Below, piece after piece: positions 8,305-42,378 of a stretch of DNA of 46,362 bases. Source of the stretch: a virus; the IMG/VR virus record IMGVR_UViG_3300032238_001861, positions 1 to 46,362 of that record; one strand, written 5' to 3'. Numbering within the stretch: position 1 is the first letter of the stretch; the number at the start of each line of letters is the position of its first letter. The translations under genes were made by a program, and so were the position numbers. Below the pieces are notes generated by a model. That model saw nothing but the letters and a program-made list of their open reading frames with translations, searched no databases and was not told where the DNA came from.

Positions 8305-9744
8305 CTAATTATTTGGTTTAAATTTTATACCAGGGATTCCTGACGGCTTACTATTATTGTTGCTAAACTTAATCGGATTAGTTAGAGCATCAGATTCATT
8401 TCTATTCGGGAATTTCACCTTTCTAGAAGTACCTTTCATTTTTTTATCGTCCTCTGGATCTTTTACTATTTCTGTTTCCGGGGAAATAGTTGATAGCTTA
8501 CCGATGTATCCAGATCTAATTATACCTCCATAAACTTCACAGTTTATTTCTTTATCTCTGTTATCAATATAACTTTCGTGCACTGCATTACTAAACATAA
8601 TATCAGAATGCATGATTTTCGAGTTATAAATTTCATTTCCTGCAATTATGTCACAATCTTCCATGGAAGAATTATTTATTTTACAAGAAAACATCCTACA
8701 GTTAAACAAATTCCCAGTAATTTCAGATTCTAAAATATCATAATCCTTAAGCAAAAAAGCTCTAGTTGTTTTTATATCACGGACCTGAAATTTACCTAAG
8801 TTACTATCGTAATTTAATTGACCTTCTTTAATCCCGTTTTCAACTATAAGATCGTAAAGAACTTCCCTTATATTTAAAAAGAAAGATCTCAATATCTGTG
8901 GATCAGATCTAAGATCTACCATTACTTGTAAATGTGGATAATTCTTTTGGAAAGATTCAGGGCTTACGAAAGTTGAAGCACTTTTATAAACCTCACTAAG
9001 GAATGATTTTAATATCTTAAGATCGTTTTGAGTAAAAAGATCGTTTGATTGTAGTGTTTGAATACAGTACGTAGAAATATAATCTATTACCTCTTTTATC
9101 TGTGAATACTTCCTTTGATAATCTTTACCTCCTAGGTATCTAACTTCAAAATATCCCTCCGGTAACTTTAAAAAATTTATCCCCATATTTTTTTCAATAG
9201 GAACTTCAAAGAGGTTCTTATCAATAAAAGATAATGTTGAAGGATCTACAAATTTATTAGAAGGAATAATTCTTTTTATTGATTTAGCATACAAAGAATT
9301 AGCTCTCTCAGGGAAAGACTTGTAAACAATATTTTCGTCAAATCCAAGTACAAATTTAAGAACGTTTAGCTGAGAAACAGGAGGAACATCGGGATAAACT
9401 GAAGTATCGATACTTATCCCAAATTGGAAAGCACATTTTTTATCAGTATATCCGTATAATTCAATCCATTTCAAAGTTCTGATTAAGACGGGGATAGCTT
9501 CAAAATATGGGAGGGGTCCTGTTATAAGCTCAACCATCTTTGTTCCACCGGAATAATCTGGTTCAAGCTTAAATATGTCCGATGTTGGTTTGAGTTTGGA
9601 ATGATACTTATTAAAAACTATTATTTTTTTTCCTAGCTCTTTACCAAGGTTTGTAGCAATCTCATCCCTGTTCAAGTTACTATAAAACTCAAATTCAAAT
9701 CCAACCTTTACAGAGTAAAAGAAATCCCTACTTTTTAAATCCAT
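8305..9744 (-). CDS. Amidoligase-like enzyme with C-terminal beta-helix-like repeats
   Basis: This 479-residue protein shows the scattered signature of the amidoligase family, ATP-dependent COOH-NH2 ligases of the glutamine-synthetase/GCS fold. VGFEFEF at residues 14-20 gives the acidic metal-binding pair E17/E19. VELITGP at 71-77 supplies E72. FQFGISID lies at 106-113. FEVRYLGG at 199-206 supplies E200 and R202. Residues about 345-400 form short repeats (N-L-x-N-C-R-M-F-S-C...) like a small right-handed beta-helix or pentapeptide tail. Family members are thought to ligate amino acids or peptides to protein or metabolite carboxylates. The substrate here is unknown, but the setting suggests a virion or host protein. 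Confidence 0.68.
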   Translation of the reverse strand: MDLKSRDFFYSVKVGFEFEFYSNLNRDEIATNLGKELGKKIIVFNKYHSKLKPTSDIFKLEPDYSGGTKMVELITGPLPYFEAIPVLIRTLKWIELYGYTDKKCAFQFGISIDTSVYPDVPPVSQLNVLKFVLGFDENIVYKSFPERANSLYAKSIKRIIPSNKFVDPSTLSFIDKNLFEVPIEKNMGINFLKLPEGYFEVRYLGGKDYQRKYSQIKEVIDYISTYCIQTLQSNDLFTQNDLKILKSFLSEVYKSASTFVSPESFQKNYPHLQVMVDLRSDPQILRSFFLNIREVLYDLIVENGIKEGQLNYDSNLGKFQVRDIKTTRAFLLKDYDILESEITGNLFNCRMFSCKINNSSMEDCDIIAGNEIYNSKIMHSDIMFSNAVHESYIDNRDKEINCEVYGGIIRSGYIGKLSTISPETEIVKDPEDDKKMKGTSRKVKFPNRNESDALTNPIKFSNNNSKPSGIPGIKFKPNN

Positions 9745-9843: not shown

Positions 9844-10956
9844 TTATTCTACCTCAGCTAACTGAATCTTGAAGGAAGATAAATCAACATTCGAAACTGA
9901 GCAGTTTACTGTTTGACCAACTTCATATTCTTTAATAGACTTCATCAATTTTTCTCTTTCAATAAGTCCGTTTAATCCGTTTTCTAACTTAACAAAAGCA
10001 CCAAATGTTTTTATCTTGGTAATTTCTGCTTTGTATATTTTCAATTGTGTATTTTCCCCAACTACATCAGAAGAAGAATCCTTGAGTTGCTGGATATTTT
10101 TAAGCTTCTCGTTAGGTTCACCAATTGACAGAGTTACTCTTTGTGGATTCTTTATATCAACTACAAAGAAGGAAACGTTATCACCAGCTTTGAGATTTTG
10201 AAGAGATGCTGAATTAGATTCATCGAAAAGAATAATACCTGTGAAAATTTCATCCCATTCAATAAATACACCATTACCAGAAGCTCCTGTAACTATTCCA
10301 TCATATTTTTGGGAGAAGGATAGGTTTCGAACTTCATTGTCTATGATTTTTTTCAAGTATTTCTTGAAAGAAACCACAAAAATATCCCTTTTTTGATCAT
10401 AGATTTCAACCATTACAGTGAGCTCTTTACCAACATAATCTGCAAAATTCATAATGCGATTAGCAGCAGCTAAACTTCCGGGTAAGAAGCATTGTATTCC
10501 TGAAAGATCAACCATAAATCCTCCGTTACATACGGAAGTTACTTTTACTTTGAATGCACAATTATCATCTTTAATTGAATTGTGCAATTCATTTTTCAAA
10601 GCTTTTTCATATCCAGCAGAAACTGATCCATAAAATGCACCAGAAGGATCTTTATGAACCACTACCTCTAGGACTTGACCTTCAGTCATTTCTATAGCTG
10701 GATATCCTAATTTATTAAGGCTTTTTTGTTCCTTTTTAGTATCAATAACAATAGACTGTCCAAATTGGGTTTCTCCTAAAGCAATACCTTTTTCTGTATC
10801 GAATTTGCTAATAACAACCCTAGTAGATGTATTATTTTTTAAGTCCTTACCGTGCACTTCATTAACATCTTGAGGTAAAGATCTATCATATAGTTTTTCT
10901 AGTACGTCTCTTTCGCTTTCTTCGTAATCGAAATACGTGTAATTTTTCTTTTTCAT
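9844..10956 (-). CDS. Ribosomal protein S1-like protein with S1 (OB) RNA-binding domains
   Basis: This 370-residue protein has three clear S1 domains near residues 132-200, 213-280 and 303-370, and a degenerate one near 45-110. Typical S1 turns are visible: GGFMVDLSGIQCFLPGS, GNGVFIEWDEIFTGII and KTFGAFVKLENGLNGLIERE. S1 domains bind single-stranded RNA. Bacterial bS1 (about 550 aa, six domains) recruits mRNA to the 30S subunit. With few Shine-Dalgarno sites in this genome, a phage S1 could steer ribosomes to phage mRNA. That function is inferred. It could instead act in RNA stability or in regulating host translation. The gene ends in a strong terminator and sits inside the structural cluster. 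Confidence 0.85.
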   Translation of the reverse strand: MKKKNYTYFDYEESERDVLEKLYDRSLPQDVNEVHGKDLKNNTSTRVVISKFDTEKGIALGETQFGQSIVIDTKKEQKSLNKLGYPAIEMTEGQVLEVVVHKDPSGAFYGSVSAGYEKALKNELHNSIKDDNCAFKVKVTSVCNGGFMVDLSGIQCFLPGSLAAANRIMNFADYVGKELTVMVEIYDQKRDIFVVSFKKYLKKIIDNEVRNLSFSQKYDGIVTGASGNGVFIEWDEIFTGIILFDESNSASLQNLKAGDNVSFFVVDIKNPQRVTLSIGEPNEKLKNIQQLKDSSSDVVGENTQLKIYKAEITKIKTFGAFVKLENGLNGLIEREKLMKSIKEYEVGQTVNCSVSNVDLSSFKIQLAEVE

Positions 10957-11013: not shown

Positions 11014-14000
11014 TTAATATTTTTTTACATTGAAAGCTTTTTGTAATTCAGATGGAAGTTCTGGGATAGGATAAACAGGATCTGCAGCTCCAAGGAAGAA
11101 TTTAAATAAACCTGAAACATCCGCTGCGCTTCTTAAAAATTCATCCATATACACTACATAATAAGTGTTTTTCAAACTCATCCTCCTCCAAGAAGGATGA
11201 TCGTCGCTCATTATTATAGGATTTATGATGTTTATTACATTTCTTCCTAATAAGACTGTTAAAGGCCAAGGAATCTTTCTTAAAATACTGGAAGATAATT
11301 CAACAGCTGGATTCACTATCCCTCCAAGAAGAGGAGATTTTGGAAGGCCTTTAAAATATTTCCAAAATAAACTATAAACTATTCTAGCAGGAGGTGGAGC
11401 ACCCATCCCAATTAAAGCTTGCTCTATTATATCTGTAGGTCTTGCTTTAGGTATGACAGGAATTTTAGCTATATCCAAAAATTTAGGAATATTAGGTGAT
11501 TCAGGATTTAGGGTTTCTCTTACCATATTTCTAGCTATCTTCTGAATATCCTGCGGATCCAAATTTGTAAACTTTGGAGAATTGATGTCATCTATTTCAG
11601 GAATCAATTGTTCGAGTAGCCCAGAATCTAATGCTGCATCCACAGTTTCAATTATAAAATTTTTAATAACAGCCCCAGGAATAGTTATTTGTACAATACC
11701 TCCTAGTCCTTGAGTTTGTGAAACCTGATCCTGCTTAGGAGGGAAAACCGTTGGTATTTCAAAAGCGGATATAGCATTACCAAAACTTCCGTTCAATGAT
11801 TCTAAACAACAGAAAGGACCTTCAGGATGTGGAAAATCAGAGACTAAAGGTTCCTCAAGATCTAAAGGTCTTTCAGGATCAAAAGGGCCTCTTCTAGAAA
11901 GTCCTAATTTTTTAGATATCAGTTTCTTTAAATCCTTTACACGAATAACGAGTATTGGATTTTCTCCCTCATATCTAACATATCTAGAAAAATCCTCCCT
12001 TGTATAAGGAATTCTAGACATACCCTCCATAATCCTAAGATACATTGCCGTTAGTAAAGGATTCTTTATCTTAGTTATTTTTAAAGGAGCAGGAGCAACG
12101 TTTGTAACTTGAACTGGAGGGAATAAAAGTTGTCCCTGTTTTTCACAATCATCAATAATCGAAAAAGCACCTTTCCTTATCTTCTTTACTACTGAAAATT
12201 TATTACCTTTCAATATAATATGAGTAATAGCAAGAGAAGTACTTCTAATTTCTTTTACTAAATCTTCAAATTCCTCCTCCTCCATAATTCTTGGATCTTT
12301 CTCCAATTTTAGAAATATCTTATTAGAATTAGAAACGGTAATATTTTCAATAATATATTTTGGTGGGGAGGGAATTCTTATTAATTTTAGAACTTCCCTC
12401 ATTTCATCTTTAAAGTTTATATTATCACCGCACCTAATAGGAACAAAGCTAGATTTCATATCCTTTAGGATCCTCAAAGATTTTACTATCCCTGGAATAT
12501 CTATTTTAAGTTTATCTTTATCCTGTGGAAAATATATCGACTTAGGATTAGGTATTCCTGTTTTTAAATAATCTTTAATTACATTCTTTAAAGTGTTCTT
12601 TCTTTGTTGTATTATCAGATCTAATTGCTCCCTTTCTTGTTCAACATTAGGTTCAGGAACATCAAGAAGTGCAAACTTTTTATCATGCTCTTTTCTTTTA
12701 GAAAGTATAGAATTTTTAAGTTCTAACTCTCTTTGTTGAGCTTCCCTTAAACCGTCTATATTTCCTGGTGGGGGAACACTATCAAATATTTTAGTAAGAT
12801 TGCTTTGTAAATCTTGTATAATTCTAGAGGGTGCATCCACGTTATCATTTCCAAATCCAGGTAACGGTATTAATTTATCGGGGATTCCGAAAGATAAAAT
12901 TTGTTTAATTTTTTCTAATGGGTCCTTTAAATCAGGATCGGATTTACGAGGAATAAATCTAGGTCCTCTTATTCCAGTTAAAAACAATGAGCTACCTGTT
13001 ATGAATTCTTTTAAATATACTAAAGGAGTAGGCATAAACCCACCTATAAAAGGGATGAAAATAACTATCATCCCTAGATTAAAAGGCAAGGGAATTATAA
13101 TCGGGTCTACTATGGTCCAAATCATAGGTAAAGGAATCCTTATATAAGGAAGTCCATCTACTGGATTAGGAACTGGTATAGGAATAAAAGCAGGGGGTAA
13201 ATATCCCACTGGCCAATATTTTAATCCAAGTCTGACAGAAGGACCTGGAGATAAGAAAAAACTAGGCTTCTCTATCGGAGGTAATCCATTTGGATAAGGA
13301 AGTAGTCCAACTTTAGTGGCATCCTTACAAAATTGTTTCCACCAACATCTTTGAAATATTGTTGGACAATCAGAACTTGGAGGTGAAGAAGTAAGATAGT
13401 TAGCAAATTTAAAATCGGATCCTGCAGGACCACAACAGGCAGGAGGGCATTGAACAGAATTATTGTTATCAACATTACCACCATCCCCTTCACCGTTTCC
13501 TCCTACACCTAAACCTGCACACTTAAGATCAGAAAATTCTCTAGCTAAGGATTCAGGACTTAAAGATTCCTCGTTCTGAGTTCTTTTTTGTGCAGAAATT
13601 AGTATAAATTCCTCTATTTGTTCTATTCTCCTTTTCATGTTGGAATAGTTTTCAAATATTCTTATTCCAACTGCGTCCAGAAGAGGTAAGGTATTTCCTA
13701 AAGCGTTCCCCGCTTGTCTAGCAAGAGCCTTTATTTCATTTATTTTAGGTATTATGTAAGTCTGCTTGTTTTGCTGATATTTTGCGTCCCATTTTGGTTT
13801 AAAGTTCCCATAAAAGTCAACGAAAACCTCATTAGGTTCACCTTCCGCATTAAAACTACTAGGCCTAAGCTTAGAAGTATCTCTAGCATCGTTATCCCCT
13901 CTTTCAGCAGCACTGAAGAAAAGCCAATTTGATGCGGATTTTTCTATAAGCTCCCCATAAAGGATTCCCCTGTTTGAGTTTATAGTATTGATTATAGCCT

Positions 14001-16191
14001 GTTTAGGGGTATTAGTGTTTAGGACGGTTTCAAAGAAATCGTAGAAATTAGCTACATCAGGAAATCCAGTTTTTATATTTGTAATTTGTAAAAACTGATA
14101 TGTTTTTAAATAGTCCGTCGAATATTCGCTAAGCAATCCACCATTGCCTGCATGTTCGTTTCCGATTTTTATTTTCTCCTGGTCTGGCTCTGGAACTTCC
14201 TGCAAAGGAGTACTAGGTTGGCCATCCATAGAAATTTTACCCGGCTTAGATACCAATTTATAAGGAAGAGGATTTCCAAGATCAGTCATAAAAGAAACTT
14301 TAAACTGAAGCTCCCCTATGCTTCTATTAAAATCAGTCTCAACAAACCTAACAGAAAAATCCTTAAGAGATTCTACAAAATCAAATCCCTGTGAAGCGTA
14401 TTCTCCTATGTTTAGAATAGATTGCGAAGAAAAAACATCCTCGTTTTTTTCCAATTGATCGTAACCCTGTCCATAAAGATCTGAAGATGATGAAGAATAA
14501 GGGTCAGCAAAAATATTTTCTAGATCGTTTATGTTAAAGTCTCTACCTGTTCTTTGTTCTAAAGTGTAAATATTAGCATCTTTTTGGTCAACTATTTCAT
14601 TTTTTTGTTCAATAAGAGAATCTATAAAATTGCTTTCGTTAATAATTTGACCAATAGATAAAACATTTTTTCTAAGTGCTTCTATACCCTCATCGACTCT
14701 CCAATCTTTTTTATTAACATCATAAGAAACCAGAGACCTGCCACCACTTATTTTTAAAAGAAATAAACTTTTTAACTGTGTTTTAGAAAGCTTAAGATCG
14801 TCAACCCTTAAATCGAAAAGATTTTGGGTAAAAACGTTATTATTAGAAAGGAAAAGACTTTTTAGTGCATCAATGTTTGTCTGTTCTTTTTCAATTTGAG
14901 CCGTTATTTCTGTTTCCTGATCAATCAGAGTCAAAATCAAAACTCCTAATTCATAATTAGTGAGATCCCCTCCATTAGATGCTGGAAATCTGTTCTCCCA
15001 AGACTGTAATAAGCTTTTTTGATATTCAAAAATTATTTCATAGTGATATAAAATTTCTTCAAGGTTTCTTTCTATCATTTGCCATCTTGCAGTCTCCCTG
15101 TTTTTAGCATCTATTTTATTTGCTTTTTCTAAAGCTGAATCTATACAAGATTGAATAGCATCAACATCAACTCTGGGAGGTTCAGGATCTTCCTGGTCTG
15201 GATTAATCCCAGAAAAATCATAGGCTGGTGGATCACAAAAATCATCCGCGACATCTTCGAAATCCTGCTTTGTTGATATTATATCCCCCGTAATTGGGTC
15301 TTCAGGAAGGCCAGGATCACAATCATCATTTACAATGGGATCATTTCCATCGGGAAAGAAATTTGCATCATATCCATCTTGTCTATCAGATCTAAATCCA
15401 CCAAGTCCTAAAAAATCACCATTAGAGTCAAAATCTGGAATATCTATGTCCAATAAATCCAAATCTTTGAAATCACATTTCTTAGAATTTTTTAGCTGAT
15501 CTTGTAAAACACGATTTATATCACTTAAAGCTTGATCATTAGTGATTGAAGGTCCCCCTAATTTTACGTGGGCAATTTTTTTACCCGACATAATAAACAC
15601 CAATGGAACCTTATATCCTAAAACATTAAGTTCTCTTTTTTTCCTGGATCCTGAATTAGAAGGTTTACCAAGAATTAATGGATCCACGTTATCAAATAGG
15701 GATTCATTGGTTTTTTCTAGAAAATCGGGATCTTTCTCTTGTAGATATTTAACTATACCCTCTGAAGATATTTTCCTATCATTTTTAAGAGAAGATAAAT
15801 TGGAACTAACTCCTAAATCTTCAGATACAAATGTTTTCTGTTCAAGAACCCCGGAATTTTTTAAATCGTTATAAAGCCTCGAATTTTCTTTTTTTAGAGA
15901 TTCTAAGAGTATTTGGGAGTACAAAGAGTCTCCCTCGTATTTACAAGCAAGACCTTCAATATCTGATAAAGGAATAGGAGGCGGTCCAGGTTCTAAACTT
16001 TGTATTAGTGCCTCTACCTCTTTCTCAGATTTTTCAAGTTCCTTATTAAAACCCTCGTCAGATTGTAGATCTTCGTATGGTATTTCTAGCTTCTCCCCAG
16101 TTATAGTTTGCACTACCTCCTCTGTGGTAAGATTTTGGAAATCTTTACCCAGTAATTCATCTATTCTTGATTCTATACTATTGTCTGCCAT
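11014..16191 (-). CDS. Giant (1725-aa) virion structural protein with hydrophobic proline-rich centre
   Basis: This 1725-residue protein starts two bases after the spike gene's stop, so it belongs to the baseplate operon. I do not recognise its family. Residues 1-60 are acidic and helical (MADNSIESRIDELLGKDF). Residues about 340-560 are helical and charged, possibly coiled coil. Residues about 917-1075 are Cys-rich then strikingly hydrophobic and proline-rich, with phrases such as PPAFIPIPVPNPVDGLPYI and LGMIVIFIPFIGGFMPTP. The remainder is mixed alpha/beta and ends VYPIPELPSELQKAFNVKKY. Its size and place next to the spike and hub suggest a baseplate or tail-tip component. The hydrophobic tract might touch membrane during infection. 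That is speculative. Confidence 0.6.
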   Translation of the reverse strand: MADNSIESRIDELLGKDFQNLTTEEVVQTITGEKLEIPYEDLQSDEGFNKELEKSEKEVEALIQSLEPGPPPIPLSDIEGLACKYEGDSLYSQILLESLKKENSRLYNDLKNSGVLEQKTFVSEDLGVSSNLSSLKNDRKISSEGIVKYLQEKDPDFLEKTNESLFDNVDPLILGKPSNSGSRKKRELNVLGYKVPLVFIMSGKKIAHVKLGGPSITNDQALSDINRVLQDQLKNSKKCDFKDLDLLDIDIPDFDSNGDFLGLGGFRSDRQDGYDANFFPDGNDPIVNDDCDPGLPEDPITGDIISTKQDFEDVADDFCDPPAYDFSGINPDQEDPEPPRVDVDAIQSCIDSALEKANKIDAKNRETARWQMIERNLEEILYHYEIIFEYQKSLLQSWENRFPASNGGDLTNYELGVLILTLIDQETEITAQIEKEQTNIDALKSLFLSNNNVFTQNLFDLRVDDLKLSKTQLKSLFLLKISGGRSLVSYDVNKKDWRVDEGIEALRKNVLSIGQIINESNFIDSLIEQKNEIVDQKDANIYTLEQRTGRDFNINDLENIFADPYSSSSSDLYGQGYDQLEKNEDVFSSQSILNIGEYASQGFDFVESLKDFSVRFVETDFNRSIGELQFKVSFMTDLGNPLPYKLVSKPGKISMDGQPSTPLQEVPEPDQEKIKIGNEHAGNGGLLSEYSTDYLKTYQFLQITNIKTGFPDVANFYDFFETVLNTNTPKQAIINTINSNRGILYGELIEKSASNWLFFSAAERGDNDARDTSKLRPSSFNAEGEPNEVFVDFYGNFKPKWDAKYQQNKQTYIIPKINEIKALARQAGNALGNTLPLLDAVGIRIFENYSNMKRRIEQIEEFILISAQKRTQNEESLSPESLAREFSDLKCAGLGVGGNGEGDGGNVDNNNSVQCPPACCGPAGSDFKFANYLTSSPPSSDCPTIFQRCWWKQFCKDATKVGLLPYPNGLPPIEKPSFFLSPGPSVRLGLKYWPVGYLPPAFIPIPVPNPVDGLPYIRIPLPMIWTIVDPIIIPLPFNLGMIVIFIPFIGGFMPTPLVYLKEFITGSSLFLTGIRGPRFIPRKSDPDLKDPLEKIKQILSFGIPDKLIPLPGFGNDNVDAPSRIIQDLQSNLTKIFDSVPPPGNIDGLREAQQRELELKNSILSKRKEHDKKFALLDVPEPNVEQEREQLDLIIQQRKNTLKNVIKDYLKTGIPNPKSIYFPQDKDKLKIDIPGIVKSLRILKDMKSSFVPIRCGDNINFKDEMREVLKLIRIPSPPKYIIENITVSNSNKIFLKLEKDPRIMEEEEFEDLVKEIRSTSLAITHIILKGNKFSVVKKIRKGAFSIIDDCEKQGQLLFPPVQVTNVAPAPLKITKIKNPLLTAMYLRIMEGMSRIPYTREDFSRYVRYEGENPILVIRVKDLKKLISKKLGLSRRGPFDPERPLDLEEPLVSDFPHPEGPFCCLESLNGSFGNAISAFEIPTVFPPKQDQVSQTQGLGGIVQITIPGAVIKNFIIETVDAALDSGLLEQLIPEIDDINSPKFTNLDPQDIQKIARNMVRETLNPESPNIPKFLDIAKIPVIPKARPTDIIEQALIGMGAPPPARIVYSLFWKYFKGLPKSPLLGGIVNPAVELSSSILRKIPWPLTVLLGRNVINIINPIIMSDDHPSWRRMSLKNTYYVVYMDEFLRSAADVSGLFKFFLGAADPVYPIPELPSELQKAFNVKKY

Positions 16192-16192
16192 A

Positions 16193-17059
16193 TTATCCTC
16201 CAGTACCTCCAGTAGCAGAATTAGGTAAAGAAACCGGCTGACTGTTTTGTGCAGGAACAGTCGGAAGATCAGGAGAGTTCTCCCTAGTTACTCTTACAGT
16301 TTGGCTAGTAGCAAGTTGCTCGAAACTTTGGGCTAATGTTGAATTAACACCAGGAGTAACTGGCAACTTGGCATCAACTGCTATAGCTAATTTTTTAAGA
16401 AAATCCCAAAGAGGCTCTGCACAAATTGCGGAAAAAACAGGAGAGTGCCCAAGATTAGTTGTTTTTCCGTCCATCCATACCTCTTCTGAAGAATGCTTTA
16501 TCCTAGTAACTGCAGTATTCTCTATCTCTTGGTCAGCATACTTAGTTATTTTACCTCCTTTTAGCTCAATAGACGAAGTATCATCAGCATGAGTGATCAA
16601 TATTGAGTTATCGTTTCTAATTATAATTTTAGACTCCTTTAAATCGATTACGAGACCTTTTTCTACCGTGTAGTAAATTTTTAATCTCTCAATACCATCA
16701 TAGATTAAAGAATGAGCTCCATCATAACTTGCTCTAATTTCCTCTATCAAATCAGGAGACAATTCCTGAACTGCTTTGTATTCAGGACTGTAATAATTGC
16801 CGTTGTTGAATTGAACATGCACAACAGATCCAAGTTTAGGTACAGACATTCTTCCTGATCCTCCTCCTAAACCATAACTCATATCAAATCTTTGATGAGA
16901 CCAGGGGAGATCTGCATCTTCTACCCCGTCATAAACACCAAAAACTCTTATTTTAGCTCTACCTTTAAATTCCGGGTCTTTATTATCAATAACAACTCCC
17001 AGAAAGTGAGCTATTTCCATGTTACTGTCTATGAGATGACCTCTAGTTATGTATGTCAT
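16193..17059 (-). CDS. Baseplate central spike protein, gp5-type OB fold without lysozyme
   Basis: This 288-residue protein begins with an OB-fold (about residues 14-95) of the gp5/VgrG type: IAHFLGVVIDNKDPEFKGRA, then SVPKLGSVVHVQFNNGNYYSPEY. A stretch of short beta repeats follows (about 110-185: KGLVIDLKESKIIIRNDNSI) that would build the trimeric needle, then a low-complexity Pro/Ser/Gly tail. T4 gp5 has a lysozyme domain between OB and needle. None is visible here, so peptidoglycan cutting must lie elsewhere. A TATAAAT element sits four bases upstream of the ATG. The next gene downstream begins two bases after its stop. Confidence 0.8.
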   Translation of the reverse strand: MTYITRGHLIDSNMEIAHFLGVVIDNKDPEFKGRAKIRVFGVYDGVEDADLPWSHQRFDMSYGLGGGSGRMSVPKLGSVVHVQFNNGNYYSPEYKAVQELSPDLIEEIRASYDGAHSLIYDGIERLKIYYTVEKGLVIDLKESKIIIRNDNSILITHADDTSSIELKGGKITKYADQEIENTAVTRIKHSSEEVWMDGKTTNLGHSPVFSAICAEPLWDFLKKLAIAVDAKLPVTPGVNSTLAQSFEQLATSQTVRVTRENSPDLPTVPAQNSQPVSLPNSATGGTGG

Positions 17060-17093: not shown

Positions 17094-20036
17094 TTACTCC
17101 TCTGTAGGATATATCTTACCAAGATTTTGATTGCTTATTTGAGAAGGTTTATCATAGACATTAGCTATAACTGTAGGATATCTTCTACCCGGTAATCCTA
17201 GATCCGAACCAGGAACATTATTATAAACATCCCCTATTGAAGACCCCTCTGAAGTGAAATTTCCTTCAGAATTTAAAGAACCATCTATGGAAATAGCATC
17301 AGCATTAGCACCAGCAATATTAGAATAGTTAAAGCTTCTACCCGAAATATTATTTTCATCTACAGGTCTTGAATTAGCAATACTATCCTTTTCATAAACT
17401 TTTCCAAGATCCTGTTCTTTTATTATGGGAAATTCATATTCTTTAGCAACTATTCTAGGGTATTCCCTTCCTCTTGGTCCTAGATCTTTCCCTGGAACAT
17501 CATCATATAAATCTATATCTCCGTCGGGGGTTTTATAGACTCTTAAAAGAGCTCCAAGATCTTCACCAGGAACTCCAAGATATTCATCTTTTGGTGGTGG
17601 GGTTGAATACATTCTTTCAGAACCTCCTAGATCAGGTCCAGGAACAGAAGGATAAACATCACCTTTAGGCTCATCATAAATTCTTCCAAGAGGACCAGAA
17701 TCTTTCCCAGGAACTTCTGGATATTCATCCCCTGGTGGTGGTGTTTTATATTCTCTATCCTGCCCTCCTAAATCAGACCCAGGAACATCTGGATAAACAT
17801 CACCCTTAGGTTCGCTATAAACGCGATCTATGACACCAAGGTCTTTCCCAGGTACATCCTTGTATTCATCACCTGAAGGAGGTGCACTATATTGTCTCAA
17901 GGGTAAACCTAAATCCGACCCAGGAACATCAGGATAAACATCTCCGCTAGGTTTTGAATAAACTCTTTCAGGAACACCCAAGTCTGCTCCAGGGACGTCA
18001 CTATATTCATCGTTATTAGAAACAGAAGGATATTGTCTTTGTGGAACACCTAAATCAGGACCAGGGACTGTGCTATAAATATCATCATTAATTGTTGGAT
18101 AAACCCTCTGTGGTACTCCTAGATCGTTTCCTGGTACGTTATTGTATTCATCAGAATTTAAAGATGGATATTGTCTTTCAGGTACTCCAAGATCGTTTCC
18201 TGGAACTCCTCCGTAAACATCACTATTAATTGTCGGATAAACTCTTTGGGGTACTCCTAAATCAGCTCCTGGTACATTTCCATATTCATCAGTAGAAACA
18301 GTAGGATATTGCCTATCGGGAAGTCCTAAATCAGATCCTGGTACATTATTGTAAACATCGTCCTGTAAATTAGAACCCCCTCCTGAATTAGTGGGTAAAA
18401 CATTACCTAGGTTCTGTCCCGGTTGAGATGAACCATTCGGATAAACATCAGAATTTATTGTGGGATATTGTCTTTCAGTCGGTCCACCTAATCCTCTTGC
18501 TTGTGGAGTATTATCCTCGAAAGGATTAGGAATTCCATTTTGAATTGTATTAATTAAACTCTGTGCACTTGATAAAGCTTGTCCAGCATTAATTCCTCCT
18601 AATCCATAGATGTTACCAAGAAGAGCTCCTTGAACAATCGAAACTCCTTGATTTGTTAAATCTGCTACAGTGTTGTTTATAAAGTTAGATGCTAATTCTG
18701 CAGCGAATTGTCCGGCATTTGGGCCAGATTCTAAGAAAGCATCCCCTATTCCAGCAGAATTTACATAATCTGAGTTTTGGTAAGGAGACGTAGGACTTCC
18801 CCAAACATCAGATATAACCATACTTTTAATATTATCATTTTTCTGTATTACATCTGCTAACTGGTTAAACTGTATCTTATGATCTTTAACCCTTCCAACG
18901 TGAATTTTAAACTTAGAAGAAACTGGTGCACCTCCTTTGTTATCTATTGATGAATAAGAAGGGAAGGTCTCATCGAAATCAAATTCGCAATGATCAAATT
19001 GGTAAATAAAAGCATATGGCCCTAAAGTGTAAGATCCGAATTTATCGTTACCTGGATCCTCAACGTTCGTCGATCTCTGAAGAAGACCGTCTGTATTGTT
19101 TAAAAGTCCCGTTTGGGTATTAAAGCTATCTAAGAAATTGGCTGCTTGTGCAACTGATGGGATTTGAAAAGGATTTAAAATATCATTAATACCATAAGTA
19201 AGCTGGATATTTCTTATCTCTGTTACGATAAGCCACATACGGAATTTTCTTAGATTTTCAGGCAACATTACTCTATGATATGTGTAATCATAGATTGCTT
19301 TCCTGTAAAGCTCAGATAATCCAAAAATTCTCATATCAATAGATTCTAGACAATCTATTGTTAAGGTGCCAGCTCTTTTAGGAGCTCCCCCTTTTTTATG
19401 ATAGTTTTTTATGTCAGTTTTTAAGAGTTGATCTAATCCACTAACAGACTGAAAATAATAAGGACAATTCCTATTAACAAAATCCAATCCTCTTTTAAAT
19501 GCCTCCAACATTTCTTGTCTTTTCACAGATCTTTGAAAAAGAAACTGTTGAGCACCCATATATGCTAAGGGAGGATTAGAAGGAAAGAATCCATAATTGG
19601 CTCTGCTTTGTACTTTCCCTTTTGATCCATAAAAGAAATCCTGACTAGTTCCAAACCCAGAATTGGTAAAATTTTCTATATCGCTACTAATTCCAGGGAC
19701 ATCCGCAGGATTTCTTCCACTTCTTAGAGCATCTAATGTTCTTGCTTCTAAATCTTGAATATCACGATTTATATTACTAGAACCACTTTTAGAATAGGAT
19801 CTAAAAAGAGGTGAGGGAGCTAAAAAAGTTTCTTCGTCGATTAAAGAATTATTTCCAAAATCGAACATAAACTTAAAATAAATGTAAGTTGGGTCCTCTT
19901 TTTTACCATGCTTAGTACTGGATATTCCTTTTAAAAATTTCTCCCTTTGGAAGTCTATTTTTCTATTTAAGATATCCCCAGTTGGTAAAACGTTACCAGC
20001 TAATCCTGAACCAAAATCTGATATAAAATCTGCCAT
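17094..20036 (-). CDS. 980-aa tail/baseplate protein with a C-terminal 24-residue tandem repeat array
   Basis: This protein has an N-terminal structural region (about residues 1-480) rich in aromatic residues, with an Ala/Asn/Gln-rich linker at about 480-555. A tandem array follows with consensus D-[EV]-Y-x-x-VPG-x-DLG-x-x-x-R-x-Y-x-x-P. Thirteen consecutive copies cover about residues 558-860, and one isolated copy lies near the C-terminus. Degenerate caps (QNLGNVLPT, QNLGKIYPTEE) flank the array. It lies between the hub and spike genes, so it is probably a tail-tip or baseplate component. The repeats may form an extended or beta-solenoid arm. The family is not recognised, and the role is inferred from position. 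Confidence 0.72.
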   Translation of the reverse strand: MADFISDFGSGLAGNVLPTGDILNRKIDFQREKFLKGISSTKHGKKEDPTYIYFKFMFDFGNNSLIDEETFLAPSPLFRSYSKSGSSNINRDIQDLEARTLDALRSGRNPADVPGISSDIENFTNSGFGTSQDFFYGSKGKVQSRANYGFFPSNPPLAYMGAQQFLFQRSVKRQEMLEAFKRGLDFVNRNCPYYFQSVSGLDQLLKTDIKNYHKKGGAPKRAGTLTIDCLESIDMRIFGLSELYRKAIYDYTYHRVMLPENLRKFRMWLIVTEIRNIQLTYGINDILNPFQIPSVAQAANFLDSFNTQTGLLNNTDGLLQRSTNVEDPGNDKFGSYTLGPYAFIYQFDHCEFDFDETFPSYSSIDNKGGAPVSSKFKIHVGRVKDHKIQFNQLADVIQKNDNIKSMVISDVWGSPTSPYQNSDYVNSAGIGDAFLESGPNAGQFAAELASNFINNTVADLTNQGVSIVQGALLGNIYGLGGINAGQALSSAQSLINTIQNGIPNPFEDNTPQARGLGGPTERQYPTINSDVYPNGSSQPGQNLGNVLPTNSGGGSNLQDDVYNNVPGSDLGLPDRQYPTVSTDEYGNVPGADLGVPQRVYPTINSDVYGGVPGNDLGVPERQYPSLNSDEYNNVPGNDLGVPQRVYPTINDDIYSTVPGPDLGVPQRQYPSVSNNDEYSDVPGADLGVPERVYSKPSGDVYPDVPGSDLGLPLRQYSAPPSGDEYKDVPGKDLGVIDRVYSEPKGDVYPDVPGSDLGGQDREYKTPPPGDEYPEVPGKDSGPLGRIYDEPKGDVYPSVPGPDLGGSERMYSTPPPKDEYLGVPGEDLGALLRVYKTPDGDIDLYDDVPGKDLGPRGREYPRIVAKEYEFPIIKEQDLGKVYEKDSIANSRPVDENNISGRSFNYSNIAGANADAISIDGSLNSEGNFTSEGSSIGDVYNNVPGSDLGLPGRRYPTVIANVYDKPSQISNQNLGKIYPTEE
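17456..18363 (-). repeat. Coding tandem repeats (~69-75 bp, 13 copies) encoding DxYxxVPGxDLGxxxRxY
   Basis: There are thirteen head-to-tail coding units of 23-25 codons. Units alternate: DVY units end mostly in RQY or REY, and DEY units end in RVY or RIY, so the underlying period is a pair of units (about 46-48 codons). VPG and DLG are almost invariant, with one DSG variant. The third-position bases differ between units, so selection acts at protein level and this is not recent DNA slippage. A fourteenth, isolated unit lies near 17150-17235. Confidence 0.88.
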
Positions 20037-20045
20037 TTTATTTTC

Positions 20046-21671
20046 TTATTTGCCGAAGATATCATTTTTGATACTTCCTATATCTTCCTGTAAAGCTGAA
20101 GATGCGTTTTCTACCAAATCATTAAAGTTAGGATCATCCTCTTTAGGATTAAGCGTTGAAGGATCTGAAGCAAGTCCAGGATTAAGAGTCCATTGTTTTT
20201 TACCTAATAAAAGGGTCTGGTGCATACCATCTTTCTTATTGTATTCAATGGTAAATCCAAGAACTACATAATTTCCAGACAAGAAAGCATTTGGTATTCT
20301 TTTATCTGGAGGTGGAGCCAAGGATGTTCCGTCTCCTCCTGCAGCAGTATATTTAGAATCTCCGGATATTGTGCTACTACCTTCTTGTACTATGTTTACT
20401 GGAAAAGTCTGTCCTCTATAAATAAAAGGTGTCCAAGCTCTATTCTTTACTTTTAATAAAACTTTGTAACTGTCATTTCTATTTAAAATATTTTGAACTT
20501 GAGCTTGATGAAAATTTTCATGAATATTTTCAAAATACAAAGTTCCAGCATAGGTATTTTTAATCTCTTCCCTATAAACGGATTCTCCCATCCTTCCCTT
20601 ATTTAAGGCATCCCTTGCACCTAAGTCTCTGTTAGTTACAGACTCTATTTGATAGCTAACAAACTTATTTTTTGGCTTATCCGAATTCAAATTTGAATCG
20701 TAAAACTGTATATTTTGAAAATATCCTAAATCGTTGTTAATTTGTCCGGCATTATGTTCCAAAGACATAGCAGTAATAAAAAGAGGAGATTTACTATAAC
20801 TTGTTTGGTTTGTCAATAATACAGGAAATTCAACTTCAGCTGTTTCTGCTCCAGGGGCTAGATCAGTCATATAATCTGCACCATAAGCCATCCTGATAGT
20901 TTCTATAGTTGAATTTTGTTCATCGAACTGTTTTTTAAGATTAACAAGATTTAAATTATAATATTGATCGATCCAACAATCAAAATAATCCTGTTCACCC
21001 AGCCAAGATCCATTAACTATAAGTTTTATTGCTTCTTCATATTCAGTGCTAGGAGAAATCCAAGTCATAGAATCATCAGTTTTTGCCTCGTTTGAGGCAT
21101 ATCCTAAATTTAATTCTTCTGCAATTTTTATTAGTGCATCAGAGCTATTTCCTTTATATGCTTTCGATATATGCTTATATAATTTTGGAATTCTAACCTC
21201 GCCTTTTACTGTATATGTTTGGAATCTTCCAGTAGAAGGCTCAAAGTTATTTTCATCATTAACAGTATTAGCTCTAGAAAAAGGGGAAATGACTTCAGTT
21301 ACAATAAAATCCATCCTAATCGGTTTAAACATCTCACCGAAAGCTCTGATATAAACAGAAAATATATCTCCATCTTTAGGAAAAGACGTGAACATAAACC
21401 TCTCATCTATGGTTTGGAATCTAAAAATAGCGGAAGGTTTGAATCCAGTTAAATCTAGTTGAAAATAATTTAGTCCTTTTACTATAACACTGTTTATCCT
21501 AATTAGTGGTTCGGCCATACCAAACCACTTTTTCTGGATATTATTCGATTTTTCGTCGTTTACTTGAGTGTTACCCTCTTGCGAAGATGTGTCTACCACA
21601 GAAAGCTCATCCAGAAATATATCTGGATTTCTGTATTGAAGAATTGCTTTTCTTACATTAAATTCTGCCAT
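20046..21671 (-). CDS. Baseplate hub protein, gp27/late-control-D-like
   Basis: This 541-residue protein fits the contractile-tail hub (T4 gp27, P2 gpD), which makes the barrel between tube and spike. A beta-rich N-terminus (about 55-165) is followed by the family's typical helical-plus-beta element, IAEELNLGYASNEAKTDDSM and then MTWISPSTEYEEAI (about residues 183-216), and SWLGEQDYFDCWIDQYYNLN at about 222-241. The C-terminal half contains tube-like beta sheets and a flexible Gly/Pro loop near residue 450. Its place, two genes upstream of the gp5-type spike and just after the LysM wedge protein, supports the call. T4 gp27 is 391 aa, so this version carries insertions. Confidence 0.75.
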   Translation of the reverse strand: MAEFNVRKAILQYRNPDIFLDELSVVDTSSQEGNTQVNDEKSNNIQKKWFGMAEPLIRINSVIVKGLNYFQLDLTGFKPSAIFRFQTIDERFMFTSFPKDGDIFSVYIRAFGEMFKPIRMDFIVTEVISPFSRANTVNDENNFEPSTGRFQTYTVKGEVRIPKLYKHISKAYKGNSSDALIKIAEELNLGYASNEAKTDDSMTWISPSTEYEEAIKLIVNGSWLGEQDYFDCWIDQYYNLNLVNLKKQFDEQNSTIETIRMAYGADYMTDLAPGAETAEVEFPVLLTNQTSYSKSPLFITAMSLEHNAGQINNDLGYFQNIQFYDSNLNSDKPKNKFVSYQIESVTNRDLGARDALNKGRMGESVYREEIKNTYAGTLYFENIHENFHQAQVQNILNRNDSYKVLLKVKNRAWTPFIYRGQTFPVNIVQEGSSTISGDSKYTAAGGDGTSLAPPPDKRIPNAFLSGNYVVLGFTIEYNKKDGMHQTLLLGKKQWTLNPGLASDPSTLNPKEDDPNFNDLVENASSALQEDIGSIKNDIFGK

Positions 21672-26081: not shown

Positions 26082-26744
26082 TCACAAGTACGTCTTAAAT
26101 CTGTATTCTCTATCAAAATATGCAATTTCTTCCTCCGTTTGTTTAGTGATAATGATACAATTCTGTCCGTATGAAATAGACGAAATATGCAGAGAGTTTT
26201 TTATCCCGCTAAACTCTTGGTTTATCATGTCTATAAATTTTGAGCTATATTTTATGGCATCAAATAATCCTATTTTATACCCATAGACACTTGAATCTGA
26301 TCTCCAATAATTGGTTTCTATATCTTCAATTATATAAATTCCTCCATAATCCAAAAGATTAGAAAAAAGATATTCAAAGGTTTCTATTTGATGTAAAGGG
26401 TGATGACTTCCATCATCTATTATAAATTTACAGCTTTCAACTATATCCTTTACCTTAGAAAGATCATCAATATTGCTCTGATCTCCTTTTATAACATTAC
26501 ATCCGTCTAGATATCCCTCAACATTTATATCCATACAGTAAACATCTGCATATGGAAAATATTCTTTCCACATTCTAACAGAGCTCCCTGTGTGATATCC
26601 TATCTCCAACATTTTAAACCTCTGGTTTCTTAAGCTTTCTAAATACCTAGGATAAAAAAAGTGATACCCATGATAAGTTACTTTATCAGTCTGGTTTTTT
26701 TCAGAAAGTGTGTAAAAATCTTTCTCTTTTATCGAATTTTCCAT
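26082..26744 (-). CDS. SAM-dependent methyltransferase (TylF/CmcI-like)
   Basis: This is a 220-residue class I methyltransferase. The SAM-binding glycine loop is MLEIGYHTGSS (residues 45-55), and MDIN at 71-74 would hold the ribose. FIIDDGSHHPLHQ near residues 108-118 resembles the metal/substrate-binding DDGSH loop of macrocin O-methyltransferase and cephalosporin hydroxylase relatives. These enzymes commonly O-methylate sugar hydroxyls in glycan or macrolide pathways. The start overlaps the upstream glycosyltransferase by 16 bases. As the last gene of the glycan island it could methylate the finished glycan. The substrate is inferred. Confidence 0.7.
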   Translation of the reverse strand: MENSIKEKDFYTLSEKNQTDKVTYHGYHFFYPRYLESLRNQRFKMLEIGYHTGSSVRMWKEYFPYADVYCMDINVEGYLDGCNVIKGDQSNIDDLSKVKDIVESCKFIIDDGSHHPLHQIETFEYLFSNLLDYGGIYIIEDIETNYWRSDSSVYGYKIGLFDAIKYSSKFIDMINQEFSGIKNSLHISSISYGQNCIIITKQTEEEIAYFDREYRFKTYL

Positions 26745-27433
26745 TTTTCTTGAAATATTGTTTGTGATCCTCCTGTTAGTCTATACATTTCTTCATTAGT
26801 TTCTACTACCCTCTCTGTTGTTTTTCCTATGTTTTTATCGTGGTGTATAACTACTGAATCTGTGACCAATGCATGATTTATTCCCTTATCGTAAAGAGTC
26901 ATAGCATAGTCATTATCACAAAACCAATGATAAAATCTTTCATCAAGATCTCCAATTTTATCATAGATCTCCCTTTTGTGAACTATACACCAGCCAGATA
27001 TTTGCTTTCTGATTTCGTATCCCTTAAGAATCCCGCTATGAATTTCTATCCCATACATAGGTTGTGTTATTGGACATATAGGAGAGAAAGAAATTATCCC
27101 AGGATTTTCCCTATTAGCTTTCAATATTTCAGAAAACCAATTTTTCATAAATTGTAAATCGTTGTTGCATAAAGCAACCCATTCAGATTCTCCTTTTTTT
27201 CTCCCGAAATTTAAAAACTTATGATAACCGTAAGGGAGGGGTGCATTGTAAGTAGCCACATTAGTAGGAAAATACGTTTCCCATTTAATTTCGGGAGATG
27301 ATTCAACTACTATAACATTAAAAATATTAGGATCTTCCTCTGAACGAAAAAGACTTTCGATGCAATTCAACGTTAGATTTTTACAATATTCATCCTTAGC
27401 ATAACTAATTATTACTACGTCTAATTTGTGCAC
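26729..27433 (-). CDS. Glycosyltransferase family 2-like
   Basis: This 234-residue GT-A-type enzyme starts with the beta-alpha entry MHKLDVVIISYAKDEYCKNL. NND at residues 90-92 within ALCNNDLQF would be the metal/nucleotide-sugar site, and CDNDYAM at 172-178 matches the acceptor-side acidic motif of GT2 enzymes. It begins with GTG at 27433, giving GTG CAC AAA. There is no membrane segment, so it acts in the cytosol. It overlaps the next gene by 16 bases. The sugar donor and acceptor cannot be told from sequence. Confidence 0.78.
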   Translation of the reverse strand: MHKLDVVIISYAKDEYCKNLTLNCIESLFRSEEDPNIFNVIVVESSPEIKWETYFPTNVATYNAPLPYGYHKFLNFGRKKGESEWVALCNNDLQFMKNWFSEILKANRENPGIISFSPICPITQPMYGIEIHSGILKGYEIRKQISGWCIVHKREIYDKIGDLDERFYHWFCDNDYAMTLYDKGINHALVTDSVVIHHDKNIGKTTERVVETNEEMYRLTGGSQTIFQEKWKIR

Positions 27434-27525
27434 AGCGGTATAATTTTTTTCTTCTTACCTTTAATACTATTTAAAAAATCAAAAGTTCCAGATTTATTTA
27501 CCTAGAATGTTGATCTAGAAAAAAA
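27434..27525. other. 92-base gap inside the glycan island, nothing recognised
   Basis: This gap lies between the GT2 gene (start 27433) and the stop of the SIS isomerase gene (27526). It is A/T-rich, without a stem-loop or ATATATA motif that I can see. TTATAC occurs about ten bases before the GTG start and might be a weak -10 element. Confidence 0.3.
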
Positions 27526-28107
27526 CTAAATCCCCTTAGCTTTAATGCTTAGATAACCTCCATGATGCCTTTTAGCATAATCGTTTTTATTAAAATTTTT
27601 AGATCTCATAAGATCTACTACAATTAGATCTGATATTACTGACATACATGTGGTAGATGTTGTAGGGGTTAATCCTAAAGGACATATCTCTTCAACCTTA
27701 CCGAACTCAAAAACATCAGAACATTTGAGATTCAAATAAGGATTAGTTTCCCCAGTTATTACAAAAATAGGATTTTGATATTCCAGTTCATGCACTAAAG
27801 AAATTAGTTCATGGATTTCTCGGGTTTTCCCGGAGTTAGTAAAAAGTATAAGGACATCTTTAGGTTGGATGATGCCAAGGTCACCGTGCTGGGCTTCCGA
27901 TGGATGCAGAAAAATAGAAGGGGTTCCTGTAGAAGAAAGGGTTGTTGCTAGAGTGTGTGAAATCTGTCCAGCTTTACCCATACCTGATGTAATAATTTTA
28001 GAGGAGCCGTCTAGACTTCTTTTTATACATCCAATGAATTCTTGAAGTCTATCAAGGGGGATTTGAGCAATAGCTTCAATTTCTTTCGATACAAGATCTT
28101 TATACAT
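27526..28107 (-). CDS. SIS-domain sugar isomerase, arabinose-5-phosphate isomerase (KdsD)-like
   Basis: This 193-residue single SIS domain matches KdsD/GutQ-type isomerases, which convert ribulose-5-phosphate to arabinose-5-phosphate, the first step towards Kdo. Motifs: SGMGKAG (41-47) for phosphate binding, the AQHGDLG active-site loop (72-78), NSGKT (91-95), and LTPTTSTT (146-153). The CBS domains of full-length KdsD (about 320 aa) are absent, as in several capsule-locus isomerases. No KdsA, KdsB or KdsC is visible here, so it must feed host enzymes or make a different sugar. The start overlaps the fcl/gmd remnant stop by 8 bases, showing that translational coupling survived the upstream deletion. 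Confidence 0.82.
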   Translation of the reverse strand: MYKDLVSKEIEAIAQIPLDRLQEFIGCIKRSLDGSSKIITSGMGKAGQISHTLATTLSSTGTPSIFLHPSEAQHGDLGIIQPKDVLILFTNSGKTREIHELISLVHELEYQNPIFVITGETNPYLNLKCSDVFEFGKVEEICPLGLTPTTSTTCMSVISDLIVVDLMRSKNFNKNDYAKRHHGGYLSIKAKGI

Positions 28108-28521
28108 TACAATTCATTTTTTCTTCTACCATCTCTTTTAAAATTTCAGATAATGTTATAGTCGATTTCCATCCGAGATTTTTTTGTGCTTTTGTTGAAT
28201 CTCCTATTAATAAATCGACCTCAGAAGGCCTAAAGTATTTAGGGTCCACATCAACAATAATTTCCCCTGTATTTTTATATTCTCTGTTATAAAATCAGCT
28301 TTAAAATCGCTATTAGCCTTTATTCCTCCAACTTTAGCAGCACATAGAAAAACTATGTCGGGCTTATTAAAATGGAGATATGATAAGGTTTCTTCCCTAT
28401 TAGAAAGATCCACATCAGATCTTTTAGGAGCAAGTATTCTGTAATTCGAATATTTTTCTAAACATTTATTATAAAGATTGCTTCCTACTAATCCAGAGGA
28501 TCCAAAAATACAAAGAATCAT
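28100..28521 (-). pseudogene. Deletion-fused remnant: fcl (GDP-L-fucose synthase) N-terminus joined out of frame to gmd (GDP-mannose 4,6-dehydratase) C-terminus
   Basis: From ATG 28521 the first 85 or so codons give a GDP-fucose synthase N-terminus: MILCIFGSSGLVGSNL, then KRSDVDLSNREET, KPDIVFLCAAKVGGI and FITENIKIQ. After about 28270-28297 that frame turns into nonsense and stops at 28207. The adjacent frame instead gives a Gmd C-terminus: IIVDVDPKYFRPSEVDLLIG, then STKAQKNLGWKSTITLSEIL, ending with TAA at 28100-28102. The fcl catalytic half and most of gmd are missing. The likely history is an in-operon fcl-gmd pair collapsed by one deletion. The surviving gmd stop still overlaps the downstream isomerase start. 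Confidence 0.85.
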
Positions 28522-28526
28522 AACGA

Positions 28527-28534
28527 TATTTATA
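28527..28534 (-). promoter_or_regulatory. TATAAATA, exact T4 late-type -10 element upstream of the fcl remnant
   Basis: The minus strand reads TATAAATA, identical to the T4 late promoter octamer, five bases before ATG 28521. At T4 geometry transcription would start on the A of the ATG. It lies in the 57-base gap after the methyltransferase gene and could still drive the downstream isomerase. Confidence 0.45.
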
Positions 28535-28578
28535 AATTATATAAAATGTATTAAAGATAGTTCCTCCTATAACGTGAA

Positions 28579-29160
28579 TTATTTGTACATATAGACAGTA
28601 AAATCGTTTTTTAGATAGTCGTGTCTAAATGTAAAATTCTTACATAATGATGAAACAATAGGTAAAGCCTCTTCTATTTTGGTATATTTCATTCCGATTT
28701 CTCTATTGCCCTCGCTTAGGTCAGAAAGGAAATTAAAGGCTAATCCTTTTTTGGAAATTTCATACATTTTTTTTATGCAATCATTAGTATTTTTTTCCCA
28801 TTCATAATCAAAACAAAATATTCCCGATGCAAAAACCCAGTCATATTTCTCGTCGATTGAATATATTTCACAATTTTTAAAATCCCTCCCTGGGTATTTA
28901 TTTTTAGCCTTGTCTATTGCAGATGCTCTCAGATCTATACCAGTATAATTTTGAATATATTTACAAAGATCCCCGTATCCACACCCAACATCTAATACCG
29001 TATCGTTTTGGTTGTATCCTCTAATCTGTAGGAGTATTTCAAATCTACTATTTTGAGAATGTATCGATCCCCATCCAAGCTGGTTTACCTCTTTATCTGA
29101 CGTAAACATTGTTAAATACTTTTTATCGATATCAAATTTTAAATTTTGTTTTGATTTCAT
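28579..29160 (-). CDS. SAM-dependent methyltransferase
   Basis: This is a 193-residue class I methyltransferase. SAM motif I is VLDVGCGYGDL (residues 55-65). GIDLRASAIDKAKNKYPGRD carries the acidic ribose-binding position, and YDWVFASGIFCF is the post-II strand. The short, compact form suggests a small-molecule or sugar substrate, but nothing in the sequence fixes it. It starts 29 bases inside the end of the glycosyltransferase gene before it, as is usual in this operon. The gene after it is the fcl/gmd remnant, with a 57-base gap between them. Confidence 0.72.
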   Translation of the reverse strand: MKSKQNLKFDIDKKYLTMFTSDKEVNQLGWGSIHSQNSRFEILLQIRGYNQNDTVLDVGCGYGDLCKYIQNYTGIDLRASAIDKAKNKYPGRDFKNCEIYSIDEKYDWVFASGIFCFDYEWEKNTNDCIKKMYEISKKGLAFNFLSDLSEGNREIGMKYTKIEEALPIVSSLCKNFTFRHDYLKNDFTVYMYK

Positions 29161-30704: not shown

Positions 30705-30708
30705 AGAT

Positions 30709-31347: not shown

Positions 31348-31349
31348 TT

Positions 31350-34221: not shown

Positions 34222-34227
34222 AATATT

Positions 34228-35845: not shown

Positions 35846-35846
35846 G

Positions 35847-37351: not shown

Positions 37352-37352
37352 T

Positions 37353-38620: not shown

Positions 38621-38649
38621 TTTTTTGTTTTATTATTTTACTGGATCAG

Positions 38650-42377: not shown

Positions 42378-42378
42378 C

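What the first reader, a model, noticed from the sequence alone, without database searches (positions are those of the whole stretch)
17094..20036. Tail-tip protein carrying a paired 24-residue repeat array
Thirteen consecutive units with VPGxDLG cores alternate in two types (DVY with RQY/REY, DEY with RVY/RIY), so the real repeat is a dimer of units. Conservation is at protein level. The array sits between hub and spike genes and is flanked by degenerate caps that repeat the phrase LGNVLPT/LGKIYPT. I know no named family with this repeat.
Basis: seen in the sequence. Interest (0 to 1): 0.7.

Follow-up and report, generated by a model that had tools for sequence, protein, structure and literature searches.

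The report
Phage baseplate protein with docking-motif tail
A protein predicted to sit where a large bacterial virus's baseplate meets its tail tube carries a long, probably floppy tail made of 13-14 copies of one strictly kept 23-residue phrase, a repeat not found in the family and structure libraries searched, which looks like a string of docking sites for another part of the virus.

Summary
The repeat is real. The core belongs to a family in jumbo/huge phages, mostly of Bacteroidota. Its predicted fold is tail-tube-like; solved baseplate-tube junction protein gp54 of T4/KP1 is among the best matches. The gene sits in a baseplate operon kept in 20 relatives, including array-less ones. No Pfam, PHROG, NCBIfam or credible PDB match covers the array, and the 80 best array hits in IMG/VR all lie on this core. 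On the core tree the array arose once; regex-counted units run from 4 to 17. The dimer register is real here but clade-specific: a sister clade has single-type arrays. Between orthologous arrays the ten motif positions changed at 2 of 120 sites, other positions at 56 of 161. AlphaFold gives the array no structure. Array-less relatives often end in one LG-x-[VI]-[YN] peptide, related to phrases flanking the array. Best reading: a disordered, multivalent docking arm of a gp54-like tube initiator, binding a conserved phage-made partner. Partner, copy number and path are inferred. New repeat on a known kind of protein.

The parts
17094..20036 (-). Whole ORF, 980 aa: gp54-like core plus C-terminal array
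   Evidence: relatives at 77% identity over residues 1-977
18597..20036 (-). Core, residues 1-480: predicted tail-tube fold, gp54-like baseplate/tail-tube junction protein; conserved in PAU, pT24, PTm1, MaF61, MA9V-1 and Lak phages
   Evidence: tblastn; alignment; AlphaFold; Foldseek
18603..18620 (-). LGNIYG motif closing the core (residues 473-478), shared with array-less relatives
18390..18416 (-). Upstream cap QNLGNVLPT (residues 541-549), degenerate unit
   Evidence: weak match to the repeat profile nearby, E 0.001
17445..18365 (-). Array of 13 tandem units (residues 558-864), consensus [GDE]-D-[VE]-Y-x-x-[VN]-P-G-x-D-L-G-[LV]-P-x-R-x-Y-[PS], alternating DVY...RQY and DEY...RVY types
17394..17408 (-). 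LGKVY motif (residues 877-881) after the array
17166..17237 (-). Isolated 14th unit (residues 934-957), nearest to unit 1
17097..17123 (-). C-terminal cap LGKIYPTEE (residues 972-980)
16193..17059 (-). Downstream neighbour: central spike, OB domain of T4 gp5 type, no lysozyme domain matched
   Evidence: PHROGs; PDB profile matches P1 Gp5 E 2e-6, T4 gp5 E 4e-4
20046..21671 (-). Upstream neighbour: 541 aa, presumed hub (position only)
   Evidence: syntenic in the 20 relatives; no credible sequence match to a solved hub

Best explanation
The protein is a gp54-like tube initiator: its core is proposed to form the ring that joins the baseplate hub to the first ring of tail tube. Its C-terminal ~420 residues are an intrinsically disordered, acidic arm carrying 13-14 copies of a short peptide motif (D-x-Y...PG-x-DLG...R-x-Y). 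Each unit is a docking site for one copy of a conserved phage-encoded partner (baseplate wedge, sheath or tube subunits are the candidates), so the arm tethers or gathers that partner during baseplate/tail assembly. The array grew from single LG-x-[VI]-[YN]-type peptides of the kind still found at the end of the core and at the C-terminus of array-less relatives. Shown here: anatomy, single origin on the core tree, purifying selection on motif positions, synteny, absence of the repeat from other genes examined. Supported by prediction only: tail-tube/gp54-like fold, disorder. Inferred: six copies (by analogy with T4), docking function, identity of the partner, origin from the LGxxY peptide.
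For: Fold: with the full-length model the top three PDB hits are gp54 of Klebsiella phage KP1 and T4 (E 0.04-0.2); with the core model a phiKZ neck protein is first (E 0.004), then the gp54s (0.01-0.08) and tail-tube proteins; in the viral library the family itself, then 'Baseplate tail tube protein' of Vibrio phage VP-1 (E 9e-4) and many tail tubes (gp54 identities). Context: gp5-type spike next door; gp25/gp6-type wedge genes in the same operon; order conserved in the 20 relatives, including array-less ones. Selection: motif positions changed 2/120, others 56/161 between orthologous arrays, Fisher p 1e-13. Disorder: array pLDDT 30-47 with almost no secondary structure, 15% Pro, 13% Gly, 13% Asp, no Trp or Cys, net charge -30 over 307 aa. 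LG-x-[ILVA]-[YFN] occurs 155 times in C-terminal regions v 8.5 in shuffles, pooled over 81 non-independent proteins. Internal partner: the motif is kept across clades whose cores are only about 30-35% identical, and the array occurs only on this protein (80 of 80 best IMG/VR hits; 17 array genomes of 46-373 kb). Precedent: in phage Mu and other myophages the C-terminal part of the hexameric tube initiator reaches outward or downward to wedge or BH1a proteins (PMC11915804); T4 gp54 is present in 6 copies at the junction (PMC3004832).
Against: No partner identified. Models are of moderate or low confidence (mean pLDDT 45 and 56), PDB fold E-values are weak, and no sequence-level match to T4 gp54 or gp48 was found (single-sequence templates). 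Copy number varies at least threefold among relatives whose neighbouring baseplate genes keep their lengths, so no fixed stoichiometry with a neighbour is evident. Disorder was predicted for a monomer only; the array could fold in a hexamer or on a partner. Some array-less homologues (e.g. MaF61, LR745206) show no LGxxY peptide.
Confidence: 0.45

Rival explanations
1. Passive spacer or bristle: the arm is a disordered linker whose length and solvation matter, not its sequence; unit count drifts freely.
For: Composition and AlphaFold output are those of a disordered chain; unit count varies from 4 to 17 by regex count; unrelated proline-rich arrays sit on homologous cores in L101 and LR756501, as if any disordered tail would do.
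Against: Motif residues are almost frozen (2/120 changes) while spacer residues change (56/161); the motif persists across clades with about 30% core identity; the array-type clade keeps one motif rather than drifting.
Confidence: 0.2
2. Host-contact array: the units bind an invariant envelope ligand (for example peptidoglycan or an outer-membrane component of Bacteroidota) after baseplate opening.
For: Multivalent, tyrosine-rich repeats suit weak, avid binding; copy number varies; known relatives were isolated on, or assigned to, mainly Bacteroidota hosts.
Against: Receptor-contact residues usually diversify, whereas these are the most conserved; the gene sits with central baseplate genes rather than fibres; the gp54-like core would place the arm near the centre of the tail; array-less relatives keep single related peptides.
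Confidence: 0.15
3. The array is a folded repeat (solenoid, or a structure formed by several chains together) acting as a rod or collar; the 46-47-residue pair is the structural repeat.
For: Strict Gly/Pro/Asp turn-like positions, regular spacing and a two-unit register.
Against: AlphaFold gives pLDDT 30-47 and almost no secondary structure in the array; the register is absent in a sister clade; very few buried-type hydrophobic residues.
Confidence: 0.15
4. The conserved tyrosines are modification sites (for example O-glycosylated) served by the sugar-gene island at 26-43 kb.
For: The window has a large nucleotide-sugar/glycosyltransferase island and the units have invariant tyrosines.
Against: The island is not tied to the array: WbqC occurs in only 2 of 17 array-bearing records, and FkbM-type genes also occur in array-less L055's genome and are absent from several array genomes; records may be fragments.
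Confidence: 0.04

Closest known systems
T4/KP1 gp54, baseplate-tail tube junction protein (PDB 5iv5, 9mkb, 9f4a/9f4b)
   Same: Among the best solved fold matches of the core in two searches; same gene neighbourhood (gp5-type spike, gp25- and gp6-type wedge genes)
   Different: 320 aa in T4 and without any repeat array; no detectable sequence similarity
PAU gp255, Tenacibaculum phage PTm1 ORF-235 and pT24 BPT24_163, Flavobacterium phage MaF61 ORF80, Chryseobacterium phage MA9V-1 MA9V1_111
   Same: Homologous core by tblastn or profile alignment; in PTm1, pT24 and metagenomic relatives next to the gp5-type baseplate gene
   Different: 368-435 aa, no array; PTm1 and PAU carry the LGNVY motif, and PTm1 ends in it
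Huge-phage homologues LR756501 (1214 aa) and L101 (949 aa)
   Same: Homologous core with long C-terminal proline-containing repeats
   Different: Different 11-12-residue repeats; apparently independent arrays
Mu gp43-type tube initiators
   Same: Hexameric tube-like domain plus a C-terminal part reaching wedge or BH1a proteins (PMC11915804)
   Different: C-terminal part is a folded helix-rich domain with LysM, not a motif array; relation to this family not tested

Membership tests
gp54-type baseplate/tail-tube junction (tube initiator) | Tail-tube-like fold | tested here: met
   Foldseek: gp54 of KP1/T4 among top PDB hits plus tail tubes; viral library E 9e-4 to 'Baseplate tail tube protein' and many tail tubes; models of moderate confidence, PDB E-values weak
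gp54-type baseplate/tail-tube junction (tube initiator) | Gene among central baseplate genes | tested here: met
   gp5-type spike adjacent; gp25- and gp6-type wedge genes; order kept in the 20 relatives
gp54-type baseplate/tail-tube junction (tube initiator) | Sequence homology to gp54 | tested here: not met
   hhalign of core alignment v T4 gp54 probability 0.3%, v gp48 0.1%; weak test, single-sequence template. So filed as gp54-like by fold and context, not as a member of the sequence family
gp54-type baseplate/tail-tube junction (tube initiator) | Hexamer between hub and tube in the virion | not testable with these tools
   needs cryo-EM
Family of PAU gp255 / PTm1 ORF-235 / pT24 BPT24_163 | Homologous core with the same conserved positions | tested here: met
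   tblastn E 3e-8 (PAU), 2e-7 (PTm1); invariant P, G, E, P, N, L columns over 9 sequences; Foldseek E 3e-15 to H9NCD2, 413 aa like PAU gp255, and 8e-15 to pT24
Known repeat families (Pfam, PHROGs, NCBIfam, PDB sequences) | Profile match of the array | tested here: not met
   no significant match; best PDB E 0.28; no hit in 50,697 phage records

The most novel reading that the evidence does not exclude
A previously undescribed assembly strategy: the tube-initiator ring of large phages carries dozens of near-identical docking peptides (about 80-100 per virion if hexameric) that bind successive tube, sheath or wedge subunits, so that the array acts as a multivalent scaffold running along the proximal tail; the two-unit register would reflect two alternating partner sites, and other huge phages built equivalent arrays from unrelated repeats.
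Probability: 0.15. Interest if true: 0.75.

Novelty: new variant of a known kind. Interest (0 to 1): 0.48.

Why it matters
It adds a repeat absent from the family libraries searched, found in more than 80 distinct proteins on metagenomic phage contigs here, and ties it to a predicted part of the contractile tail (the baseplate/tube junction) in jumbo phages whose tails are poorly described. It gives a name and a test to a 'hypothetical protein' family in PAU-, PTm1- and Lak-like phages. If the motifs are docking sites, it would be a natural multivalent peptide scaffold in a contractile machine, with a sequence-defined, testable partner interface.

Tried and rejected
Recombination or DNA-level repeat artefact: units differ by 23-53% in DNA while protein motifs hold. 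Link to the gp25-like N-terminus (EIYPRNPGDPNY resembles a unit): a similar N-terminus (MRDLYMRDPATDPNY) occurs in the genome of array-less L055, so not tied to the array. Link to the 1725-aa neighbour: length does not follow unit number and no recognisable homologue was found in L222/L230, which have arrays. Ruler for the local baseplate: neighbours keep constant length while unit number varies; tail length itself could not be tested. Glycan island: not tied to the array. Weak PDB hits of the repeat profile (interleukin-1 receptor accessory protein, E 0.28) judged chance. Genome-contig scan with the repeat alignment could not run: no stretch conserved enough. No paper found on PAU gp255, PTm1 ORF-235 or a motif array on a tube initiator.

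Full report
Observation. The ORF 17094-20036(-) is 980 aa. Residues 558-864 hold 13 tandem units and residues 934-957 an isolated fourteenth. Spacing is 23 or 24 residues, 25 once. Tandem Repeats Finder scores the pair (138 and 141 bp) above the single unit (69 bp). In the pooled set of 476 regex-found units from 62 proteins, the consensus is [GDE]-D-[VEQA]-Y-x-[ND]-[VN]-P-G-x-D-L-G-[VL]-P-x-R-x-Y, most often spaced 23 (D2, G9, R17 and Y19 are partly imposed by the regular expression used). A check that does not depend on that expression uses the collinear alignment of the window with its 77%-identical relative: motif positions changed at 2 of 120 sites, all others at 56 of 161. dN/dS over the array is about 0.12, with dS near saturation.

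What carries it. The N-terminal ~480 residues match PAU gp255, PTm1 ORF-235, pT24, MaF61, MA9V-1, Lak and other huge phages by tblastn. Two alignment-guided scans of IMG/VR gave about 100 further loci. AlphaFold models are of low to moderate confidence (mean pLDDT 45 full length, 56 core) with well predicted elements at about 50-80, 160-270 and 341-389. For the full-length model the best PDB folds are gp54 of Klebsiella phage KP1 and T4; for the core model a phiKZ neck protein comes first (E 0.004), followed by the gp54s and tail-tube proteins including a jumbo-phage tube (chain identities). In the viral library the family itself comes first, then tail-tube and baseplate tail-tube proteins. 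Sequence-profile comparison with T4 gp54 or gp48 finds nothing. I therefore call it gp54-like by fold and context only.

Context. In the window and the 20 relatives fetched, the order 617-aa protein, wedge-like 201-aa protein, 541-aa presumed hub, this protein, gp5-type spike, variable large protein, S1-domain protein, amidoligase-like protein, neck adaptor, gp25-type and gp6-type wedge proteins is conserved wherever the fetched stretch covers it, with one exception: in L233 no neighbour beyond the spike was recognised inside the stretch, although its gp25-type gene lies elsewhere in the same genome. Array-less members share the order. The spike match to T4 gp5 is significant; gp6- and gp25-type wedge calls rest on PHROGs; the 'hub' call is positional. 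The 980-aa protein is therefore an inherited baseplate component that acquired an array, not an inserted gene.

Evolution of the array. On a tree of the core, array-bearing proteins form one side of a branch (one change, SH-aLRT 88; distant rows have long branches). Counted by one regular expression, units run from 4 to 17. The two-type alternation is present in the clades around the window and absent in a sister clade of 19 tree rows (L087-L097, L141-L174 and others), where neighbouring units are about as alike as, or more alike than, lag-2 units. Window units 1-3, 6-8, 10, 11 and 13 match the same positions in L002 best, so that part of the array is older than that split. The window's C-terminal 115 residues resemble L018 more than its closest relative L002, by eye, suggesting module exchange. 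All 80 best repeat hits in IMG/VR lie on this core, and in 17 array-bearing records of 46-373 kb the repeat profile finds only this gene region. No cultured phage in the collection carries it.

The LGxxY peptide. LGN[IVA]Y closes the core in most array-bearing members and in PAU and PTm1. Array-less members frequently end in it: LGNVND, LGNIND, DLGNVFK, NLGNVYL, DLGNVYN. L055 and L100 carry proto-units such as DVYPNVPE and DVYPGAPG followed by LGNVF or LGNxY. Pooled counts are 155 observed against 8.5 in shuffles, over non-independent proteins. My inference is that the array unit is an elaboration of this older docking peptide; the alignment of DLGxPxRxY with LGNVY needs a short insertion and is not proven.

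Mechanism. The array is acidic, Pro/Gly/Asp-rich and predicted disordered, yet its motif residues are almost frozen while the spacer residues change. That pattern suits short linear motifs better than an inert spacer. Because the motif is kept across clades with about 30-35% core identity, and array-less relatives often keep a single related peptide, the partner is more likely a conserved phage protein than a host receptor. In phage Mu and other myophages the C-terminal part of the hexameric tube initiator contacts wedge or BH1a proteins (PMC11915804), and T4 gp54 occurs in six copies at the junction (PMC3004832). A multivalent docking arm from the tube-initiator ring to baseplate or proximal-tail subunits is the reading I find most likely (0.45). 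Spacer, host contact and folded repeat remain open at lower weight.

Novelty. The repeat has no match in the libraries searched. The carrier is a recognisable kind of protein. Homologous cores in LR756501 and L101 carry unrelated proline-rich arrays, so repeat tails on this core appear to have arisen more than once. I file it as a new variant of a known kind.

Limits. Fold assignment rests on shallow-alignment models; counts depend on regular expressions; many IMG/VR records are fragments and near-duplicates; hexamer, partner and location of the arm were not testable here.

Noticed in passing
26082-43002: A block of about 20 minus-strand genes for sugar/glycan chemistry: SIS, NAD-epimerases, FkbM methyltransferases, WbqC, GSCFA, PIG-L deacetylase, glycosyltransferases including GT10-like. 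Two groups are paralogous (31350/41643; 40211/41008/42379).
   Followed up: partly
6273-7478: Homing-endonuclease-like gene (phrog_3339, E 2e-21) between the neck adaptor and the gp25-type gene; L221 has a 401-aa ORF at the same place, several relatives list no ORF over 250 aa there.
   Followed up: no
8305-9744: Amidoligase_2-like protein (weak Pfam match, E 7e-4, below cut-off) inside the tail operon, present in nearly all relatives, as is an S1-domain protein at 9844-10956.
   Followed up: no
11014-16191: 1725-aa protein of unknown family with a long hydrophobic proline-rich middle (IPLPMIWTIVDPIIIPLPFNLGMIVIFIPFIGGF), variable in length and without a recognisable homologue in some relatives.
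   Followed up: partly
5488-5859: gp25-type protein starts MARYSEIYPRNPGDPNY, which resembles a unit (DVYPTNPGxDLG); a similar N-terminus occurs also in the genome of array-less L055.
   Followed up: yes
L010:7692-11333; L101:5734-8580: Homologous cores carrying long C-terminal arrays of unrelated proline-containing repeats, e.g. SGTIDTSFKPHPPV and VDLxAPPVxxxxxTN.
   Followed up: partly
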